Below are positions 3,196 to 36,307 of a stretch of 56,288 bases of DNA, in pieces. The position numbers and the translations under genes are program-made. The stretch is from contig WYAU01000082.1 in the NCBI GenBank assembly GCA_011525665.1, positions 1-56,288 of the forward strand, read 5' to 3'. Numbering within the stretch: position 1 is the first letter of the stretch; each line of letters opens with the position of its first letter. The notes below the pieces were generated by a model. That model was given only the letters and a program-made list of their open reading frames with translations, did not search any database and had not been told where the DNA came from. The stretch comes from Candidatus Brocadia sp. (GTDB lineage Bacteria > Planctomycetota > Brocadiia > Brocadiales > Brocadiaceae).

Positions 3196-3617
3196 CTAAA
3201 AATTTGTTGGCGTGTACTCATTCGCTGGAAATTTTCCTGCGTGATTGCCAGGTGTCATTTCCCAACACTTTGCTTTTTCATGATATCAAAGAAAGAATCA
3301 TGTTCACAAACACATGGAGTATTGGCAGCATCTCCAAGATGAATTACGGGGGTATGGGCGCCATAGGCTTCTACTACCCGTTGCAGAAGGTCAGAACAAA
3401 ATAAATCCTGTTGCACAGGCCTGATAGCTACAGGAATAACCTTATCTATTATTCCGTTTCTTAATGCGTTAATAGGATTCCCATACAGATTGTTAATCTG
3501 GTTATCTGAAATAATTAATACCTCGGGCAACTTCTCAAAGGGCAATTCTATTTGTTCTCCACACAAATCGCTATTAAACAAATTGATGAATGAGGGTACC
3601 CTCGCATAATTTGTCAA
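3196..3617 (-). pseudogene. Truncated, frameshifted copy of the neighbouring metallophosphoesterase
   Basis: The first 120 codons (3617-3255) encode a clear paralogue of the N-terminal third of the 563-residue phosphoesterase upstream, including a SDNQINNLYGNP stretch, IRPVQQDL and the metal-site motif HLGD. The frame then stops at 3255. In another frame the sequence continues with MTPGNHAGKF, matching the PGNHD metal motif of the intact gene, and ends at a TAG at 3196-3198. The remaining two thirds, with the AHHP and GHTH motifs, are absent. It lies 34 bp after the hammerhead gene in the same operon. It looks like a decaying tandem duplicate, not a functional enzyme. Confidence 0.8.
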
Positions 3618-3651: not shown

Positions 3652-3939
3652 TCAGGAAATCTGTGCCAGAAGTTGCGAAGGTTCATACTCCAGATTTTCA
3701 AAACGTATGCTTCTATTCAAGTATTTTACCTTTCCTGCACATCCACCGGGGGCTTTTAATGATTCAAGCGAGTGATCACCCCATTGAATCGTTGCAAGGA
3801 CATCCTCAGGTTCAACATTATCGCCTACTTCCTTTTTCCAATCTATCGAAGCAACATATTCTTCTTTCTCTGCAAATGCTGCCGGATTATTTCTCAACTC
3901 TTTAGTGGTAGCGTCATAGGTGACCAATGGGTTACTCAT
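3652..3939 (-). CDS. Small biotinyl/lipoyl-like hammerhead domain protein
   Basis: This 95-residue soluble protein carries a segment (roughly residues 28-93) resembling the biotinyl/lipoyl or HlyD-type barrel-sandwich hybrid: VGDNVEPEDVLATI followed by LKAPGGCAGKV, the usual x-x-APxxGxV turn. The canonical EAMKM or DKA acceptor lysine motif is missing at the hairpin, so covalent biotin or lipoate attachment is doubtful. The start overlaps the end of the phosphoesterase gene by 8 bp, indicating translational coupling. The role is unknown; it may be an adaptor for the envelope proteins of this operon. Confidence 0.65.
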   Translation of the reverse strand: MSNPLVTYDATTKELRNNPAAFAEKEEYVASIDWKKEVGDNVEPEDVLATIQWGDHSLESLKAPGGCAGKVKYLNRSIRFENLEYEPSQLLAQIS

Positions 3940-5623
3940 TATTGACTCCTTTCGGGGAAGGGAAACGTATATACGGGTCTGTTACTACAGGTTTGCGTCC
4001 TTCTAGTTTGTCGTATTTACTCGCCCACACTGCCTGCCACAGTCTGTAGTCGCGTCTCTCAAGCGAATTCCTTACTTTTCTCTTTTTGTCAAATCCTTCC
4101 AATGTTATTAAGAGAGAGGTCATTTCCTTTATGTCTTTATTTTTCAATACCCCTTCAATAGCATTAATAACAGCTTGGTCGTTTGAACAGTCCTTTACCC
4201 AGACAGTATTGTCTTCGGCGCTTTCAACATTAACGAGAAGTTCTCTATACGTATGCAGGAGCGCGACAAGCAGATCTTTTTGAGTCTTTGTTGGATCCAC
4301 CTCATACTTATAATTATGAGCCAGGTAAAAATTTTCGGCGTCTGTTTCTTTAATCTCCCACTTCACTGCATTACATTGCGGCTTCATGGGAGGAACTGCG
4401 TTGTCCCAAATATCAGGTATACGAAATAGCGGGGTACGAATGACAATATTTTTAGGATCGTTTTTAATCTGATGAATTTCAAATGTTCTGAATTCAATGG
4501 GCCAATCAACTATGGAACCAACATTAAGCTCGATCCACCCGTTGTCTCCACCCTGAACATAGTATTCACCCTGATGTGTGTGACCTGAAACATAAAGAGG
4601 AATAGTGTATTTTTCCCTAAACATGTCAATTTTATGACTCGTACTCGTTATCAGACTTGAATAAGGATGGTGAGCCATTAAGATTGTTATTTTTTCCCCC
4701 TTCGGAGCATTACTAAGCCATCTCTCTGCAATTTCAAGCTGATCCGACAGCATACTGCCACTGAGCCCAGCGCTATATGATATTGATGGTATCGGTGGTA
4801 TTGTGGGAGCATTCTCATATTGGGCGCTGTCCATCAATATCGCGTATACAGGTAAATCCGAATCTCCTATACACAGGTTAAGCTCCTGCAACACATAGGA
4901 ACGATATGGTCTCTCCCTATCAATCTTATATGCAACAGATTTCAGGAATTCCTTGCAGATTTCTTCACTATTTGCAGGAAGCAAAGTAGTGCTAACAGTA
5001 CCAATATTTTCCGGCCATTCCCCCAGGACAGGATGATTGTCAAGGTACTTCCCAAAGTCTTCATTCTGTTCTTTCAGATGATTTAGATATTCTTCAACAA
5101 ATCGATCCTTGGTCATCGGACCATTAGCTTCCATGCAAGCGCTTTTCCAATCCCTTTCCAAATTGTGAAGATTGCCCAGGAGATAAGCATCGTGATTTCC
5201 GGGCACCATAACCCAAGGTTGTTTTGCTGTATTCATAATTTCACAGAACGATTCAAACTCACCTATACAGGCAATGTTCGTGCCATCCCCAAGATGAACT
5301 ACCGGATGTCTCTTTCCATAATATTCCAAGACCCATTTCAGGATATCTTGACCGTAAAGGTCTTGCTGCACAGGCCGTATAGTCACAGGGACAAACTTAT
5401 CAAATAACTCATTTCTCAACCAGAAGGGGTCACCGTACAGGTGATTGAGCTGATTGTCAGCAACCAACAACAATCTCTTTGACACAGCATAACCATCAGG
5501 TTTTTCTGGTAGGATTTCATACTTGGACGAAATAGATCGGGGGGCACTACCGCAACCAATGAAATACATGGTCAGAAATAATAGAACCAGTGTGCTCATT
5601 ACCTTTTTTGTAAAATGCATCAT
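3932..5623 (-). CDS. Calcineurin-like metallophosphoesterase lipoprotein
   Basis: This 563-residue protein has a signal peptide with lipobox YFIGC (Cys 24), so it should be anchored in a membrane outside the cytoplasm. Metallophosphoesterase motifs appear in order: ADNQ (55-58, in place of the usual DxH), HLGDG (110-114), PGNHD (141-145), AHHP (317-320) and SGHTHQ (346-351), forming the expected dinuclear metal site. About 200 extra C-terminal residues show no recognised domain. Start ATG 5623 is preceded by GAGGAG. The gene is the second of the leftward operon beginning at 7071, under the c-di-GMP riboswitch and sigma-54 promoter, and is coupled to the hammerhead gene. The substrate (nucleotide, phospholipid or glycan phosphate) is unknown. 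Confidence 0.88.
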   Translation of the reverse strand: MMHFTKKVMSTLVLLFLTMYFIGCGSAPRSISSKYEILPEKPDGYAVSKRLLLVADNQLNHLYGDPFWLRNELFDKFVPVTIRPVQQDLYGQDILKWVLEYYGKRHPVVHLGDGTNIACIGEFESFCEIMNTAKQPWVMVPGNHDAYLLGNLHNLERDWKSACMEANGPMTKDRFVEEYLNHLKEQNEDFGKYLDNHPVLGEWPENIGTVSTTLLPANSEEICKEFLKSVAYKIDRERPYRSYVLQELNLCIGDSDLPVYAILMDSAQYENAPTIPPIPSISYSAGLSGSMLSDQLEIAERWLSNAPKGEKITILMAHHPYSSLITSTSHKIDMFREKYTIPLYVSGHTHQGEYYVQGGDNGWIELNVGSIVDWPIEFRTFEIHQIKNDPKNIVIRTPLFRIPDIWDNAVPPMKPQCNAVKWEIKETDAENFYLAHNYKYEVDPTKTQKDLLVALLHTYRELLVNVESAEDNTVWVKDCSNDQAVINAIEGVLKNKDIKEMTSLLITLEGFDKKRKVRNSLERRDYRLWQAVWASKYDKLEGRKPVVTDPYIRFPSPKGVNNE

Positions 5624-5769: not shown

Positions 5770-7071
5770 TTACTGCGGCCTTGCAGGATCCGTGTCAGCA
5801 GAAGTGTCTTTGTTATTGCCATTACTCTTTTCTTTTAATCCCGCAACAGCTTGTTTTAATTCATCTATAGTTTTGCCTGTTTCTTCTTCCCACAATCTTT
5901 CTATTTCCCGTTTTACCCTCGCGTCAGCTTCAGAAGTGCCACACTGTTGATATTGTTTGGCGAGGGCCGCTTCCTTATCTTCGCCTTTCTTTCCGCTAAT
6001 AGAATTTTTAATCTTAAATATTCTCACTGTTGCTTCAGCGGTGACTCCCATTTTCCTTATAGCATCTATCTTATCTGCCTCCGACTGACTTGGTTGAATC
6101 AGTATGCCACCAAGAGTTTCTTGAACATTCGTGCTTATTTGATCAAGTATTGCTCGGTCAACGGCCTTAGCAGACTTTGATACCGTTAAAACAGCGTATG
6201 TTTTATCTTCGAAATCCTTGCCTCCTGCAGTTAATCTTCCGGTAGTTGCGTCATAAAGCACCTTCGATGATTCGAATTCCTTTTTTGCATTATCTTCATC
6301 TTCAATTCCTTTATCAAGCCACCACCATCGGTTTATTATTACCCGGTCTTTATCCTCCCTTTTCACTATGACTAAATCACTTACTTCCAGCGGTGCTACC
6401 AGGGATGCCTCTCCATAATGCTTCTTTTCGATGTCTGACAACGGATAAAGAGTTATTTCCTGGGAAAGTTCAAGATCATCCTGATTTGAGTTAATAATAA
6501 ACTGCATGATAGAAGATACGGTCTCTATTGCTGCGCCATATTGTGGTTGTGCAGCACTAGCAACGGTAGAAACAGCTTTGAGAACCTCTGAAAGCAATTC
6601 ATTATTTTTCTTATCCAATTCAAAAACATAGAACTTTATTGTTACGGGATGTCCCTGGAAGTGGGTAGGACCATATAACAGGTTGCCAGCCATATTTAAA
6701 TATGAATTTGACGGTTGATTCAATCTGTGAAAGGCCACTCTTTTCAGCACTTTTGTCTCATCAACAACATCATAAACCTCTGCATACACGATAATATCGA
6801 AATCCCAAACGGACTGTGCGTACTTCAAATAGAGGGTTTTCAAAGAAATAGCAACAACATCCGAAGGCAATTTTATACTCCGATCTTCATTGGTATCTGT
6901 CGTCGCGTAAATCCCAACCAGTTCATATTTCGTACTTTCCGCTGGGGTTTCCGGTGAAGTTTCTTTCACTTTCCATAAAGAATTTTGCCCGGTTATTGTC
7001 CATTGTGCACATCCTGACAACATTGTTGTTACACATAGCACGGCAAATAATATGCGATGCTTAATATTCAT
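5770..7071 (-). CDS. Lipoprotein of unknown function, first gene of c-di-GMP-controlled operon
   Basis: This 433-residue protein starts MNIKHRILFAVLCV and has a clear lipobox LSGC (Cys 21). No known domain was recognised. The centre contains a beta-rich segment with a conspicuous NRWWWLDKG stretch; the C-terminal 100 residues are charged and predicted helical, ending in a low-complexity Asn/Asp/Pro-rich tail. The frame is open to 7218, but ATG 7071 has AGAAAGG upstream and begins the signal peptide. It precedes the phosphoesterase lipoprotein by about 150 bp on the same strand. The long leader (about 630 bases) contains the riboswitch, terminator and a large hairpin. Confidence 0.8.
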   Translation of the reverse strand: MNIKHRILFAVLCVTTMLSGCAQWTITGQNSLWKVKETSPETPAESTKYELVGIYATTDTNEDRSIKLPSDVVAISLKTLYLKYAQSVWDFDIIVYAEVYDVVDETKVLKRVAFHRLNQPSNSYLNMAGNLLYGPTHFQGHPVTIKFYVFELDKKNNELLSEVLKAVSTVASAAQPQYGAAIETVSSIMQFIINSNQDDLELSQEITLYPLSDIEKKHYGEASLVAPLEVSDLVIVKREDKDRVIINRWWWLDKGIEDEDNAKKEFESSKVLYDATTGRLTAGGKDFEDKTYAVLTVSKSAKAVDRAILDQISTNVQETLGGILIQPSQSEADKIDAIRKMGVTAEATVRIFKIKNSISGKKGEDKEAALAKQYQQCGTSEADARVKREIERLWEEETGKTIDELKQAVAGLKEKSNGNNKDTSADTDPARPQ

Positions 7072-7197: not shown

Positions 7198-7248
7198 TTC
7201 ACCTAAATCCTGCATCAAGGCGAAGCCTTGATGCAGGATTTAGGTGAA
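7198..7248. repeat. Perfect 24-bp stem hairpin in the operon leader
   Basis: Arms 7198-7221 and 7225-7248 are perfectly complementary around a 3-base loop. On the minus strand the loop region reads GGC-TTC-GCC. The hairpin lies in the 5' leader of the lipoprotein operon, 127-177 bases before the start codon. No T-run follows, so it is not a normal terminator. It could be a mobile palindromic repeat, an RNA-stabilising element or a processing site. Confidence 0.75.
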
Positions 7249-7531: not shown

Positions 7532-7584
7532 AAAAAAGCCTTACTGCAAAGATATTTACTCAAAACATCTTCGGCAGTAAGGCT
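7532..7584 (-). terminator. Intrinsic terminator of c-di-GMP riboswitch (locus 1)
   Basis: On the minus strand GCCTTACTGC (7583-7574) pairs with GCAGTAAGGC (7547-7538), followed by TTTTTT. The 5' arm CCTTA can alternatively pair with TAAGG at the start of the upstream aptamer. Termination and the ligand-bound aptamer are therefore mutually exclusive. Confidence 0.85.
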
Positions 7585-7685
7585 GTCTTTATTCCTGCAA
7601 AAATGGCTTTTTCAAACCACTTCCGTGTAGATTTAAAGATCCACTACTTTGCGCCCCCTGATCGCTCAGGGTTTACCCTTATCGT
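7581..7685 (-). promoter_or_regulatory. Cyclic di-GMP-I (GEMM) riboswitch, locus 1
   Basis: The minus strand reads GATAAGGGTAAACCCTGAG, then GATCAGG, then GGGCGCAAAG, and ends GACAGCC. These are the conserved blocks of the GEMM-I aptamer (GGGCAAACC, short P2 hairpin, GGACGCAAAG, ..GACAGCC). P1 is TAAGG/CCTTA. Because CCTTA is also the terminator's 5' arm, ligand binding should prevent termination (ON switch). Two positions differ from consensus: GGGTAAACC for GGGCAAACC, and GGGCGCAAAG for GGACGCAAAG. Affinity may therefore be lower than that of the second copy at 36 kb. It controls the lipoprotein-phosphoesterase operon downstream. Confidence 0.85.
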
Positions 7686-7713
7686 AATGTTTTCCAAAAG
7701 TAAAATTAGCTTT

Positions 7714-7729
7714 CGCAAAATAAAAGCCA
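7714..7729 (-). promoter_or_regulatory. Sigma-54 (-24/-12) promoter, locus 1
   Basis: The minus strand reads TGGCTTTTATTTTGCG, with GG and GC exactly 10 bp apart as required for RpoN promoters (TGGCAC-N5-TTGC). It lies about 30 bp upstream of the riboswitch, so the transcript would start just before the aptamer. The palindromes 120-175 bp further upstream fit the usual enhancer position. The same arrangement occurs at 36119-36134. Confidence 0.7.
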
Positions 7730-7846
7730 GGAGAGGGGCAAAGGAATTGATTTTAATAGAATATTTTTTAATAGTTTGAATTTTAAATACTTATGAACAA
7801 AAAACCGTGGAAATACATTTATCTTAGTAAATTCAAATAGACATAA

Positions 7847-7902
7847 AAAGTGTGCCATGTCACACAAGTGAGTCGCGACACATGTGTGACATGGCACACT
7901 TT
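7847..7902. promoter_or_regulatory. Clustered palindromic operators (probable enhancer-binding sites), locus 1
   Basis: Arms 7847-7866 and 7883-7902 form a perfect 20-bp inverted repeat. Each arm contains GTGTGCCATGTCACAC or its complement, itself a 16-bp near-palindrome of type GTGTG-n-CATG-n-CACAC. The 16-bp spacer has another dyad (GTCGCGAC). The lack of a flanking T-run and the position 120-175 bp upstream of a sigma-54 promoter argue for binding sites of an RpoN activator and against a terminator. A matching cluster is present at 36259-36307. Confidence 0.7.
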
Positions 7903-31892: not shown

Positions 31893-34800
31893 TTACTGAA
31901 ATGCATGTTGAAGCAGATTAATTATTCCCATGCCTCCGAGTGGTGTAAGTGATGCAAAAAGTATAGGATTATTGCTTAATGTAGCAAAGGCGCCATTTCT
32001 TGTATTCTGAATATCTTCTATAATAAATCTTGTAAACCCTAACTCTCGCTCTAATTTCTCATTGTTTGACTCACTGCTCGTTTGTTTTTTATCCTTCATC
32101 AATTTTAGAAGCTTATCTTTTAATTGGTCAATGACTTTCTGCCGTCCTCCTTTTGCCTCACGGAACAGCATGATTGCACTATACAGTACAATCAGTATGG
32201 ACAGCACTACAACAACTGCCAGAGGCAATGTCCATTTCCAATTATCAATAAAATTATAGCGCGCAATACAGAAGATAAGTAACAAAATGAACGGGTACTT
32301 GATCATCTTTGCATTTACCTCCGTCCTTTTTGCAATAACTTTGATAATAACATACCAATAGTCGTCGTTCTGTTCGTTTCCTTTCAATTGAAATAATTCC
32401 TTTATAAACTTACGGCATTTGAACGTATCAAAAACAACATGCCAGAAGAGAAAGAACGTTAAAAAAAGGCTGGAAATCAGAATAACACGGTCTAGGCTAA
32501 AACAGAGAGAACCGCGACCGGGTATTAAAGGGTTTCCATACTTATATATAAATGCAAATCCAAGAAGTAAGTGAACACATGTAATGATAGCAACTGTTCT
32601 ATATCTCTTCCAGGTTTCGTTACTTTTTTCAAATGTATGCCACTTTTCTTTAAGATCAGCAAAAAAGCCTTCCCCTTTTTGCTCTGATAATATATGCGCT
32701 ATTTCCTCCTTATTACGCTTAACATGTTGTAGAGAGAGGGCAAAAAAGCATGTTCCAAGAAATCCGTTCAAAAGCCGGATCAATTCGGTTGGCCAAATAC
32801 TAATACCATCAAGAAATGTTATTGGTTCACCATCCGCACTGAGGGATGATTTTATTGCAAGTGCAACAAATAGTACATAAAACGCTCCCCCTATAATCCC
32901 AAGACATTTCCAGTAACACATGAACTTCAAATATGTTGGGAAATCACTAAAATCATTTTGATCAGGCAAAAATTGCCAGAAGAACCAACCAAGTATTATT
33001 ATAGGGGGAACAAACAGACATATGAAAAATTTTATCTGCACATACGTCCGATCAGGATGAAGATATAACTCCTCCTTTCGTAATTCTGTTTCTGGTGTAT
33101 GGTCTGAACTTAAATCATATTCACCCCGATACCCTATTTCAAAGATGCGAGGAGATATCTTATTTAAATTAATATCATCTTCCTTTAAACTACCCAATGC
33201 CTGCAAAGCGGCAACAAAGGCAGAGGTTTGATAGACGGATCTGAAAGGTGGGATGTCTTTTTGCAAGTTATGACGTAACTGCAGTCCATAACTCGATGCG
33301 ACGATCAGGTTCCTTGTAAAAGGTAATTCGGTATGATGCCAGAGACGGGCGTCAAGGTCTGTGGTAAAAAAAATAGTATTGCGAAATTCTTTACGAAGCG
33401 CGCGTAATATCAACAATTTATCATAAACATCGCTGCCCATTATACCAATCGCCCGAATTTTATCACGATCGTTTACGATATTTTTTACTTTTTCTGTAAG
33501 ACGTCGCATATAGTCAAATTGGTCTTGTCCCTGGGGTTGTTCGAATTTAGGATTGAAATAATCAAAATCGGTTGGTGAACTCTTCTTCTTGTCGCTATTG
33601 GAATTACCTCCGGTAGATATTTCTGAATCCCTGTTAGGCAATTTACCATCGATACCACGCATATAGGTAATGGTATGAATACGTTCAGGCCAGGTATTGC
33701 CAATCCTTTGCGGGGTTTCTTCTGAATAAGCCTTCTCTAAAAGAAGGCGATTCAATCTTTTTGTTTCCCATTGAGTATCCTCACTTAAACGGGAAAAACC
33801 AATACTGCGGTCTTCTTGAGTCTCTTTTATAATGTTAGACAATCGGTCTTTACCCCTCACTTTACCCAAAAAGTCATACAATCCAGGATTTGTTAAAAAT
33901 TCGTTTAGCCAATCGATTGGCTTGCGGGAAGCATTCAGAGGCAATAAAGGAATAAGGTCTGGAGCCTTACCAGGGTAAATGTGTGCCAAGACAAGACGGT
34001 TAAGCAATTTTATGGCATATTTTTCATCGTTGTTCAACTTGGAAAAACTTTTCTTTCTGTACCTAACTGTTTTATTATTCAATTCCTTTATAATTTTGCC
34101 AGAAGTTATCTCTCGTCGTTTTTCTGAAGGTATTTTATCATAAAAATCAGGAACTTTTAAAAGTTCATTGAGCCACTCAATGGTATGACTGGATACGTTC
34201 TTGAAAGGAGGCACTCCATAATCAGCACGCTCAATCTCAATACAGAGTGTTACGATATCATGTGGTTGTTTAAATTCGTCCTTGCGAAAGTCTATAGAAT
34301 TTAATATGTCCTCAATAATCTTCTTATAAAGCCTCTCTGGGTTCAATGGTTCCTTAAACTCACCCTTAAAGAAATCTGAATAACCCTCCTCCCGTTCACG
34401 ATATTTTTGTACAGACATAGCAAAAGAGGTCGGTAAGGCACGTCCGTAAAAGGTATCCCATTCACTAATAAGCAGTATATGATCGGAGCTATTGCTTGAC
34501 AAATTTATTTTTCGACGTGTCAACTCATCAACCAATTCATCGGTCAATTGTGAATCATTGTGAATGGTAGCTGTTAAGGAAATATCTGATTCTGTTGGGA
34601 ATAGTAATGTATAAAAAGCATCCTTTTCAAGATATTCTTCTAATTCTTTCTTAATTTGTATGAGATTTGAAATACTTTTTTGAGGTTTTTCTCTTTTAGA
34701 CATACGCTGCCCAATTTGATATATTAAAAAAAAAGGGTCTGCATTAGCCCATGGAGAATATAATATAAACTTTTTCTCTGAAGAATTCTTTAATATCTTT

Positions 34801-35921
34801 TTTATCTCTTCTATTTTGTCGGAATGCTTCTTTTTAGCTGATTCTAATTCTGATTCTAATTTTTTTATTTCAGATTCAAACTCTCTTTGCTCATTTTTTA
34901 TTTTTGATTTTACATCTTCAAGAAGTTTTTTTCTTTTATTTTTACATAAGCTATCCTTTCTATTATCTAAATCTTTAAATTTCTTACTTAAAGATATCCA
35001 TATTCCACGCACTTCATTTTTTTCTTTACGTTCTTTACGTTCAAGTTGTTTTTTTTGTAAATTAACTTTTTTCTCTTTGTTAAACAAAGCATTTTCAGAT
35101 TCAGATAATTCATATAATTTCTGAATATTTTCAGCTATTTCTTTGTTTTTTTCATCAAGTGCCTGCTTACAAATCTCTTCAAGGCATAAAGAGTCTTTAG
35201 GGCCAAGAATCTTACAATCAACTCTATCGGAACCCTGCTTTCCATCTGCATCTTTTACCTCTATTACAAATTCCTTAACTACCTCCAGCACTTGCTTCGT
35301 TATCAATTCCATCTGACCTAATCGGTCATTTGAAAAATATTCGTCCCCCAGCCAAAGGACAAGAACTGCCTCGTAAGTATTTGTGGCTTCTGCGTCCGAC
35401 ATCTTCAGGGTATCCTGAAGATACCACTCGTATGGTATAAGGCGTTCTTGTCGGTTGATCTGTGCTTTGAACACCCCAATATGTGTGGCATTTTTGGGTT
35501 GATAACCGGCAGCATGAAGCGCAGAAAGCACGGCATATCGGGTTCTCAGGCGCTCTTCCGCATCTTCTGTATAATGGCCAGCACTTATCATAACAGGCAT
35601 GATCAACACATCCTTAATGTCTTCCTGAGATTTAAATATCCCGGATTTCTGACAACCGTCCATTATGTTTGGAATGGAAAATTTTGGATGAATTGCCTCA
35701 GTATCTTTTCTATAACCTTCAACCGCTTGAAATGGGTCCTGCCACAAACGGGCAAGCACTTTTTCTTCTTCTATCTGCTGTTCTATTTCTTTTTGGCTCT
35801 TGGACGGCCGGAGTGATTCTAAAGGCGAATAGAAAGTAAAAACACCGCCTGCAATAATGGCAGCAATAAGCAGGGTAATAGAAAATGGAAACGATGATTG
35901 CTTGTCTTGGTGATCGGTCAT
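31893..35921 (-). CDS. 1342-residue polytopic membrane protein of unknown function, c-di-GMP controlled
   Basis: Layout by residue: TM helix 11-31; a mixed domain with VLIMPVMISAGHYTEDAEERL (about 105-215); highly charged coiled coil 250-380; a second globular region 385-560. An internal duplication follows (about 581-650 and 669-737, both with WLNExLxxPxxYD ... FSxLxxD ... LNRLxL). A PBP-like segment (about 820-915) includes GIMGSDVYDKLLILRAL, FFTTDLDARLWHH and RNLIVASSYGLQL. Seven C-terminal helices occupy 960-1255. No Walker, kinase or nuclease motif was seen. The DARL/NLIVASS block recalls ligand-binding folds of amino-acid ABC receptors, but this is weak. The gene stands alone behind a sigma-54 promoter and c-di-GMP riboswitch like those at 7.5-7.9 kb, which links it functionally to the phosphoesterase operon. 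Confidence 0.85.
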   Translation of the reverse strand: MTDHQDKQSSFPFSITLLIAAIIAGGVFTFYSPLESLRPSKSQKEIEQQIEEEKVLARLWQDPFQAVEGYRKDTEAIHPKFSIPNIMDGCQKSGIFKSQEDIKDVLIMPVMISAGHYTEDAEERLRTRYAVLSALHAAGYQPKNATHIGVFKAQINRQERLIPYEWYLQDTLKMSDAEATNTYEAVLVLWLGDEYFSNDRLGQMELITKQVLEVVKEFVIEVKDADGKQGSDRVDCKILGPKDSLCLEEICKQALDEKNKEIAENIQKLYELSESENALFNKEKKVNLQKKQLERKERKEKNEVRGIWISLSKKFKDLDNRKDSLCKNKRKKLLEDVKSKIKNEQREFESEIKKLESELESAKKKHSDKIEEIKKILKNSSEKKFILYSPWANADPFFLIYQIGQRMSKREKPQKSISNLIQIKKELEEYLEKDAFYTLLFPTESDISLTATIHNDSQLTDELVDELTRRKINLSSNSSDHILLISEWDTFYGRALPTSFAMSVQKYREREEGYSDFFKGEFKEPLNPERLYKKIIEDILNSIDFRKDEFKQPHDIVTLCIEIERADYGVPPFKNVSSHTIEWLNELLKVPDFYDKIPSEKRREITSGKIIKELNNKTVRYRKKSFSKLNNDEKYAIKLLNRLVLAHIYPGKAPDLIPLLPLNASRKPIDWLNEFLTNPGLYDFLGKVRGKDRLSNIIKETQEDRSIGFSRLSEDTQWETKRLNRLLLEKAYSEETPQRIGNTWPERIHTITYMRGIDGKLPNRDSEISTGGNSNSDKKKSSPTDFDYFNPKFEQPQGQDQFDYMRRLTEKVKNIVNDRDKIRAIGIMGSDVYDKLLILRALRKEFRNTIFFTTDLDARLWHHTELPFTRNLIVASSYGLQLRHNLQKDIPPFRSVYQTSAFVAALQALGSLKEDDINLNKISPRIFEIGYRGEYDLSSDHTPETELRKEELYLHPDRTYVQIKFFICLFVPPIIILGWFFWQFLPDQNDFSDFPTYLKFMCYWKCLGIIGGAFYVLFVALAIKSSLSADGEPITFLDGISIWPTELIRLLNGFLGTCFFALSLQHVKRNKEEIAHILSEQKGEGFFADLKEKWHTFEKSNETWKRYRTVAIITCVHLLLGFAFIYKYGNPLIPGRGSLCFSLDRVILISSLFLTFFLFWHVVFDTFKCRKFIKELFQLKGNEQNDDYWYVIIKVIAKRTEVNAKMIKYPFILLLIFCIARYNFIDNWKWTLPLAVVVVLSILIVLYSAIMLFREAKGGRQKVIDQLKDKLLKLMKDKKQTSSESNNEKLERELGFTRFIIEDIQNTRNGAFATLSNNPILFASLTPLGGMGIINLLQHAFQ

Positions 35922-35943
35922 TTTATGGTATTAACTTTAAATA

Positions 35944-35993
35944 AAAAAACCTTACTGCAAAGATATTCATGCTAAGCATCATTGGCAGTAAGG
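35944..35993 (-). terminator. Intrinsic terminator of c-di-GMP riboswitch (locus 2)
   Basis: On the minus strand CCTTACTGC (35993-35985) pairs with GCAGTAAGG (35958-35950), followed by TTTTTTTAT. The T-run ends about 20 bp before the start codon at 35921. The 5' arm overlaps the P1 strand of the aptamer, exactly as in locus 1. Confidence 0.87.
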
Positions 35994-36092
35994 CTGTCTT
36001 TTTTAAACCGTTGAAGCAGTTTAAACCATTTCAACTGTTAGAAAGACCCTTTCCTTTGCGTCCCCCGATCACTCAGGGTTTGCCCTTATCGT
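35992..36092 (-). promoter_or_regulatory. Cyclic di-GMP-I (GEMM) riboswitch, locus 2
   Basis: The minus strand contains GATAAGGGCAAACCCTGAGT, GATCGGG and GGACGCAAAG, a variable P3 arm and closing GACAGCC, matching the GEMM-I consensus blocks exactly. P1 (TAAGG/CCTTA) competes with the terminator at 35950-35993, so ligand binding should allow read-through. The GGGCAAACC form with G at the discriminating position suggests c-di-GMP rather than cGAMP, though only binding tests can settle this. It controls the 1342-residue protein. Confidence 0.9.
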
Positions 36093-36118
36093 GATTTTTA
36101 ATTTACGAATGATTAGAG

Positions 36119-36134
36119 GGCAAGGTAAATACCA
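36119..36134 (-). promoter_or_regulatory. Sigma-54 (-24/-12) promoter, locus 2
   Basis: The minus strand reads TGGTATTTACCTTGCC, with GG and GC at the exact RpoN spacing. It lies about 27 bp upstream of the aptamer. The same element, spacing and order occur at 7714-7729. Confidence 0.7.
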
Positions 36135-36258
36135 AAAAAGGGGGGAAAGAAATAATTTTAAAATATTATTTCCTTATGTTGCTGATATTAAGTATCTTAT
36201 AGATACAGCAGAAGGAGGTGAACCGTAGTGTGATTTATTCAACCGAAAATGGATAAAA

Positions 36259-36307
36259 TGTGCCATGACACACTTGTGTGACGTCACAACTGTGTGTCAT
36301 GACACAC
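36259..36307. promoter_or_regulatory. Triple palindromic operator cluster, locus 2
   Basis: Three dyads occur in 49 bp: TGTGCCATGACACAC (36259-36273), TGTGACGTCACA (36277-36288, perfect) and GTGTGTCATGACACAC (36292-36307, perfect). The outer two share the GTGTG-n-CATG-n-CACAC pattern of locus 1. The cluster starts about 125 bp upstream of the sigma-54 promoter, a normal place for enhancer-binding protein sites. The cognate regulator is not in the window. The rest of 35922-36469 contains no other recognised element. Confidence 0.72.

What the first reader, a model, noticed from the sequence alone, without database searches (positions are those of the whole stretch)
7532..7902. Sigma-54 promoter, palindromic enhancer sites and c-di-GMP ON-riboswitch stacked before a phosphoesterase operon
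Seen: on the minus strand, in order, a 20-bp inverted repeat cluster (7847-7902), a GG-N10-GC promoter (7714-7729), GEMM-I blocks (7581-7685) and a terminator (7532-7584). The terminator's 5' arm CCTTA also pairs with the aptamer's TAAGG. Established: GEMM-I RNAs bind c-di-GMP, and sigma-54 promoters need distant activators. Inferred: transcription needs both an enhancer-binding protein and c-di-GMP, a two-step gate on one envelope operon.
Basis: partly seen in the sequence, partly recalled or inferred. Interest (0 to 1): 0.88.

Follow-up and report, generated by a model that had tools for sequence, protein, structure and literature searches.

The report
Sigma-54 regulon with c-di-GMP riboswitches
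In an anammox-group bacterium, a set of genes carries two stacked switches, an activator-controlled start site followed by an RNA sensor for the signal molecule c-di-GMP; the stretch reported is one of at least six such copies in the genome, and the same design recurs in related species.

Summary
On the minus strand, window 7902-7532 carries, in order, paired palindromes, a GG-N10-GC (-24/-12) element, an Rfam c-di-GMP-I aptamer (51.1 bits, E 4e-7) and a terminator that overlaps the aptamer.

It is not a one-off. A second complete copy lies at 36307-35943. Of 35 c-di-GMP-I riboswitches in the genome, exactly six have a TGGY-N7-TTGC element just upstream, and exactly those six have the 34-bp-spaced palindrome pair 165-225 bp upstream.

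The operator is three tandem palindromes. It recurs in 10 of 11 genomes of the genus (reversed-pattern control 0). Of 68 distinct operators, 49 have a sigma-54-like element 105-135 bp away (control windows 0-10); 31 of 59 operator loci from relatives hold a c-di-GMP-I riboswitch.

Best reading: a sigma-54 activator regulon, about half of whose transcripts must also pass a c-di-GMP ON-riboswitch. The best activator candidate is a REC-PAS-AAA+-Fis protein present in every operator-bearing genome tested. Targets include a diguanylate cyclase and a second activator, suggesting feed-forward and feedback loops.

The parts are known; I found no description of their regulon-wide stacking. Binding, start sites and read-through were not measured.

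The parts
7884..7899 (-). distal operator palindrome GTGTGCCATGTCACAC
   Evidence: 0 mismatches to GTGTGNCATGNCACAC; 34 bp from its partner
7866..7883 (-). middle operator element ATGTGTCGCGACTCACTT (consensus elsewhere (T/A)nGTGTGACGTCACACnn)
   Evidence: middle element seen between nearly all pairs; imperfect here
7850..7865 (-). proximal operator palindrome GTGTGACATGGCACAC
   Evidence: 0 mismatches
7714..7729 (-). sigma-54 -24/-12 element TGGCTTTTATTTTGCG, 120 bp from the operator end
   Evidence: spacing lies in the 117-124 mode of 68 operators
7703..7703 (-). predicted transcription start (C of the -12 element at 7715)
   Evidence: inferred from the -12 position, not mapped
7570..7687 (-). 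c-di-GMP-I (GEMM-I) aptamer
   Evidence: RF01051, 51.1 bits, E 4.2e-7; G at the Vc2 G20 position
7641..7648 (-). P3 5' strand AGTAGTGG, the aptamer partner of CCTTACT
   Evidence: Rfam alignment; folding
7532..7583 (-). intrinsic terminator; 5' arm GCCTTACTGC (7583-7574) overlaps the P3 3' strand, 3' arm 7547-7538, U6 to 7532
   Evidence: the same terminator in all 34 loci whose arms could be read
5773..7071 (-). first gene: 433-aa lipoprotein (LSGC lipobox), no Pfam or NCBIfam family
3932..5623 (-). second gene: metallophosphoesterase with lipobox-like N-terminus (FIGC)
   Evidence: PF00149, E 4e-12
36258..36307 (-). operator of the second complete copy
   Evidence: 1 mismatch over both outer palindromes
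36119..36134 (-). sigma-54 element TGGTATTTACCTTGCC of the second copy, 123 bp from its operator
35981..36094 (-). c-di-GMP-I aptamer of the second copy
   Evidence: RF01051, 56.2 bits, E 2.3e-8
35943..35994 (-). overlapping terminator of the second copy
31893..35921 (-). 1342-aa membrane protein of unknown family controlled by the second copy; homologues in three other species sit behind the same architecture

Best explanation
The stretch is one member of a sigma-54 regulon. An enhancer-binding protein (best candidate: the REC-PAS-AAA+-Fis protein encoded at G000:C16:4309-6009) binds a triple palindromic operator and activates a -24/-12 promoter about 120 bp away. The transcript then meets, within about 30-50 nt, a c-di-GMP-I aptamer whose P3 3' strand is also the 5' arm of a terminator, so it is read through only when c-di-GMP holds the aptamer together. 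Output therefore needs initiation by the activator and read-through by c-di-GMP. Since one gated target is a PAS-GGDEF diguanylate cyclase and another a second enhancer-binding protein, the gate probably sits in a coherent feed-forward and positive-feedback circuit. Shown by computation: element identities, recurrence, spacing, mutually exclusive folds, co-occurrence of activator and operator. Inferred: protein binding, ligand, direction of switching in vivo, AND logic.
For: Covariance hits for both window copies. 35 c-di-GMP-I riboswitches in the genome; the six with TGGY-N7-TTGC 28-52 nt upstream are exactly the six with the operator pair at 165-225 nt (chance of such coincidence about 1 in C(35,6), 6e-7). 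Operator pair in 10 of 11 genus genomes, reversed control 0; 5 of 246 phylum genomes, all in the own family. 49 of 68 operators have a sigma-54-like element at 105-135 bp, control windows 0-10. 31 of 59 operator loci of relatives hold a c-di-GMP-I or c-di-GMP-I-GGC riboswitch, against about 1% expected from riboswitch density. All 34 readable loci share the aptamer-overlapping terminator; RNAfold gives -61.6 kcal/mol with the terminator and -48.0 with P3 forced. Activator: ortholog in G000-G009, G013, G015, G018, G022 (all with operators), not in G010, G011, G020, G021 (none), with the operator 37-73 bp past its stop in four genomes. Homologous targets keep the architecture across species.
Against: No experiment. 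The aptamer at 7570 departs from consensus (C to U at model position 13, A to G at 34, a U-U mismatch in P3) and scores in the lower part of the 35. 19 of 68 operators lack a sigma-54 match at the threshold; five of these lie 3' of the activator gene or in its vicinity. Strong TTGA or TTGT variants of the -12 element were accepted in relatives. G012 has the activator but no operator at up to 3 mismatches. About 460 nt separate the window terminator from the first gene, so further control there is possible. The rpoN gene itself was not searched.
Confidence: 0.75

Rival explanations
1. The two layers are not independent inputs: the activator itself answers to c-di-GMP (as FleQ does), so the stack is a sharpening cascade on one signal.
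For: A diguanylate cyclase is a gated target and a PAS-HD-GYP gene lies beside one operator; FleQ is among the solved relatives of the second activator.
Against: The main candidate activator has REC and PAS domains and keeps the receiver aspartates by eye, which points to phosphorelay input. The second activator has a degenerate receiver in all homologues aligned, input unknown.
Confidence: 0.2
2. The palindromes are intrinsic terminators or a mobile repeat, unrelated to the promoter.
For: The hairpins are strong and often followed by T-runs; five operators sit downstream of the activator gene like a terminator.
Against: The window copy lies in a divergent intergenic region with no minus-strand gene to terminate. 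Fixed distance to a -24/-12 element at 49 of 68 sites, sequence-specific core with variable N positions, and conservation over homologous targets are not expected of terminators or repeats.
Confidence: 0.05
3. The riboswitch is an OFF-switch or a c-di-GMP sponge (like merRNA of Bdellovibrio) rather than an ON-switch.
For: 35-56 copies per genome are many; merRNA is a precedent for non-classical use (PMC3627812).
Against: Terminator and aptamer P3 share one strand in all 34 loci, the same logic as the tested pilM ON-switch (PMC9262584), and the riboswitches precede genes.
Confidence: 0.07
4. The activator is the pseudo-receiver protein of contig C71 (L044) rather than the C16 protein.
For: Its own gene lies behind operator, sigma-54 element and riboswitch here; operator upstream also in G001 and G008 and an operator-like site in Kuenenia hertensis.
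Against: No ortholog in G002, G003, G005, which have operators; the C16 protein has the better distribution.
Confidence: 0.25

Closest known systems
Transcriptional GEMM-I ON-switches, e.g. pilM of Geobacter metallireducens (PMC9262584)
   Same: Same aptamer class; aptamer and terminator use the same strand and exclude each other.
   Different: pilM senses cGAMP. Here the pocket position equivalent to G20 is G (c-di-GMP type) and an enhancer-dependent promoter with a shared operator lies directly upstream. Whether Geobacter GEMM genes have sigma-54 promoters was not tested.
PrsK/PrsR PEP-CTERM regulatory system (Haft 2006, PMC1569441)
   Same: A shared upstream element plus -24/-12 promoter defines a sigma-54 regulon of surface proteins with an NtrC-type activator.
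   Different: Motif 1 there is a 17-nt TTTACA-ended motif about 63 nt from the promoter; here three palindromes about 120 bp away. TIGR02915 scores are below cut-off for both activators. No riboswitch was described there.
gbpA of Vibrio cholerae (PMC4545359)
   Same: A promoter with a transcription factor input (cAMP-CRP) and a GEMM-I riboswitch in the same leader.
   Different: Single gene, not sigma-54; c-di-GMP represses it, reported as independent of the riboswitch.
merRNA of Bdellovibrio (PMC3627812)
   Same: c-di-GMP riboswitch RNA in a genome whose phase programme uses an alternative sigma factor (FliA).
   Different: An abundant free RNA without a downstream gene.

Membership tests
c-di-GMP-I (GEMM-I) riboswitch, RF01051 | covariance score above the gathering threshold over the full model | tested here: met
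   51.1 and 56.2 bits, threshold 35, positions 1-87
c-di-GMP-I (GEMM-I) riboswitch, RF01051 | G at the Vc2 G20 position (c-di-GMP type rather than A, as in the cGAMP type) | tested here: met
   alignment; G in the loci read; equivalence and role from PMC9262584 and PMC6274999
c-di-GMP-I (GEMM-I) riboswitch, RF01051 | binds c-di-GMP and changes expression | not testable with these tools
   no wet experiment
transcriptional ON-switch | aptamer strand forms the terminator 5' arm | tested here: met
sigma-54 promoter | GG-N10-GC with TGGY and TTGC blocks | tested here: met
   7729-7714
sigma-54 promoter | activator sites upstream at a consistent distance | tested here: met
   49 of 68 operators at 105-135 bp
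sigma-54 promoter | transcription start 12 nt past the -12 element and dependence on RpoN | not testable with these tools
   predicted start 7703; rpoN gene not searched
NtrC-family enhancer-binding protein (C16 candidate) | sigma-54 interaction AAA+ domain, Fis-type HTH | tested here: met
   PF00158 E 4.5e-71, PF02954 E 1.1e-15
NtrC-family enhancer-binding protein (C16 candidate) | binds this operator | tested here: inconclusive
   only co-occurrence and gene adjacency
PrsR (TIGR02915, PEP-CTERM-box regulator) | score above 502.6 bits | tested here: not met
   358.6 and 339.3 bits; no genus genome over the cut-off
cGAMP (GEMM-Ib) riboswitch | A at the G20 position | tested here: not met
   G in both window copies

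The most novel reading that the evidence does not exclude
A regulon-wide AND gate: one sigma-54 activator starts transcription at dozens of surface-protein and regulator genes, c-di-GMP riboswitches decide whether the transcripts are finished, and the activator also drives a riboswitch-gated diguanylate cyclase and a second activator, giving a coherent feed-forward loop with positive feedback that may control aggregation in anammox bacteria.
Probability: 0.4. Interest if true: 0.72.

Novelty: new variant of a known kind. Interest (0 to 1): 0.62.

Why it matters
Sigma-54 promoters are silent without their activator, and ON-riboswitches stop the transcript without their ligand, so stacking them gives a very tight two-signal decision. 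Finding it as a recurrent cassette rather than one odd operon makes it testable with sequence alone. It also gives an anammox lineage, in which gene knockouts are not routine (from general knowledge), a concrete regulon, operator and candidate activator for surface proteins.

Tried and rejected
PrsR/PEP-CTERM-box membership: rejected by score and motif. CRP-type site: TGTGA-N6-TCACA has a different spacing from TGTG-N6-CACA here; not pursued. cGAMP class: rejected by the G20 position. Palindromes as terminators: rejected for the promoter-linked copies. Assigning the activator by family search alone failed, since each genome has dozens of such proteins. The pseudo-receiver activator was the first candidate and was demoted after its absence in G002, G003, G005. 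A hydrazine synthase domain (PF18582) search to confirm anammox identity found nothing, in controls too; identity rests on the AMX368 16S probe target in 18 of 39 relatives, six of them in the genus though not in G000 itself. The orthologue of the window lipoprotein in G006 lies in another context without the stack. An 11-bp periodicity of operator-promoter distances (clusters near 109, 120, 132) is suggestive only: the test beats a smoothed null, but the signal does not peak at a helical period. Literature searches for a sigma-54 plus GEMM stack found no description; many subscription papers are not held. Errors without result.

Full report
CHECK. The window is contig C78 of a 3.63-Mb genome. 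The -24/-12 element TGGCTTTTATTTTGCG spans 7729-7714 and predicts a start at about 7703, 16 nt before the aptamer. The palindrome cluster is two 16-mers of the form GTGTGNCATGNCACAC, 34 bp apart, around a shorter palindrome. Reading the second riboswitch showed the same stack: operator 36307-36258, TGGTATTTACCTTGCC at 36134-36119, aptamer and terminator.

RECURRENCE IN THE GENOME. The genome has 35 c-di-GMP-I riboswitches. Six have TGGY-N7-TTGC 28-52 nt before the aptamer, and these six are the ones with a complete operator pair 165-225 nt upstream. Two more (C67, C17) have the operator farther away, about 300-380 nt from the aptamer, with a weaker -12 block (TTGA) at the usual 117-119 bp. Among the other 27, ten have a sigma-70-like match of 10-12 of 12, against none of the six. 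So riboswitch and sigma-54 promoter are separable modules that are combined in a defined subset.

RECURRENCE IN RELATIVES. The operator pair at up to 3 mismatches is found in 10 of 11 genomes of the genus and 4 others of the family, never in 15 genomes of other families of the order, and never in the reversed control. In a draw of 246 genomes of the phylum, at up to 2 mismatches, only 5 have it, all in the own family. For 68 distinct operators I scored a sigma-54 consensus on both sides: 49 have a match of at least 17.5 at 105-135 bp, while equal windows at other distances give 0, 4, 10, 5, 5 and 3. cmscan of 59 operator loci from relatives found a c-di-GMP-I or c-di-GMP-I-GGC riboswitch in 31; from about 40 riboswitches per 4 Mb, roughly 1% would be expected.

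THE SWITCH. In the Rfam alignment the aptamer's P3 stem pairs AGTA..GG (7648-7641) with CCTTACT (7582-7576). The terminator's 5' arm GCCTTACTGC is that same strand, so aptamer and terminator exclude each other. RNAfold favours the terminator by 13.6 kcal/mol when P3 is forced, as expected of a ligand-dependent, co-transcriptional ON-switch. The arms are shared by all 34 loci that could be read, with a few compensatory changes (A-U to G-C at one position in two loci); the sequences are too alike for a strong covariation test. The same logic was shown experimentally for pilM of Geobacter (PMC9262584).

THE ACTIVATOR. The genome has dozens of enhancer-binding proteins. Two stand out. The first, C16:4309-6009 (REC-PAS-AAA+-Fis), has orthologues in every genome of the set with operators and none in four operator-free genomes of the same family; G012 is the one exception. 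The operator lies 37-73 bp past its stop in G000, G001, G004 and G009, 557 bp in G003, and operator-like sequence starts at that place in G006, G007, G008, G015 and G022. Enhancers can act from downstream, so this may be autoregulation, or a terminator built from operator sequence. The second, C71:7241-8575, is itself a target: operator, sigma-54 element and riboswitch precede it, with the operator also upstream in G001 and G008 and the riboswitch in G004, G008 and G009. Its receiver domain lacks the phosphoacceptor aspartate in all homologues aligned, while GAFTGA is kept in nearly all. The simplest circuit is a cascade in which the first controls the second.

TARGETS. Behind operator, promoter and riboswitch in this genome: the window lipoprotein and phosphoesterase, the 1342-aa membrane protein, a Kelch-repeat secreted protein, an Ig-like protein, the second activator, and a PAS-GGDEF protein; a matrixin-type protease and an NHL-repeat protein follow the two more distant operators. 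In relatives: homologues of the 1342-aa protein (G001, G007, G008), Kelch protein (G009), Ig-like protein (G004), second activator (G001, G008), another activator with a PocR domain, caspase-PEGA proteins, an autotransporter and SBBP propellers. Conservation of target plus architecture across species argues for function.

MECHANISM AND LIMITS. Committed model: activator on the triple operator, sigma-54 initiation, c-di-GMP-dependent read-through, with the gated diguanylate cyclase closing a feed-forward and feedback loop. Identities and statistics are computed; binding, ligand and logic are inferred. Lineage: the 16S probe target AMX368 (sequence confirmed in PMC3562551) occurs in 18 of 39 relatives, six in the genus, so the genome belongs to the anammox order, most likely near Brocadia (inference).

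NOVELTY. Each part is known. sigma-54 regulons defined by a shared upstream box are known (PMC1569441) and GEMM-I ON-switches are known. No held paper describes their stacking across a regulon. I therefore rate it a new variant of a known kind.

Noticed in passing
window 7198-7248: A perfect 24-bp hairpin with a 3-nt loop (TTCACCTAAATCCTGCATCAAGGC) lies in the leader between the riboswitch terminator and the lipoprotein start; no T-run follows.
   Followed up: no
window 3255-3617: A 120-aa ORF resembles the N-terminal part of the 563-aa phosphoesterase upstream of it and looks like a truncated duplicate.
   Followed up: no
G000, G001, G004: The genus carries 20-56 c-di-GMP-I riboswitches per genome, some in close tandem (C17:8997/9212 and 10676/10963).
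   Followed up: partly
L036 2087-2136 and L258, L259, L267: A near-perfect copy of the operator followed by a T-run sits just 3' of the candidate activator gene in several species, without a clear sigma-54 element nearby.
   Followed up: partly
L044 3742-5079 and homologues L149-L159: A subfamily of enhancer-binding proteins with a receiver that lacks the phosphoacceptor aspartate occurs in anammox bacteria, Desulfobacterales, Acidobacteria and Methylomicrobium.
   Followed up: partly
L012 (C71) other side of the operator: A second good sigma-54 element (TGGCATTATATTTGCT) lies 157 bp on the opposite side, so the operator may serve divergent promoters.
   Followed up: no
L041 5663-9872 (C17): An exosortase gene and a PEP-CTERM-like small protein lie in a cluster with four c-di-GMP-I riboswitches.
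   Followed up: no
G000 whole genome: PF18582 (hydrazine synthase alpha) gave no match although the lineage looks anammox; nothing matched in the controls either, so this is unexplained.
   Followed up: no
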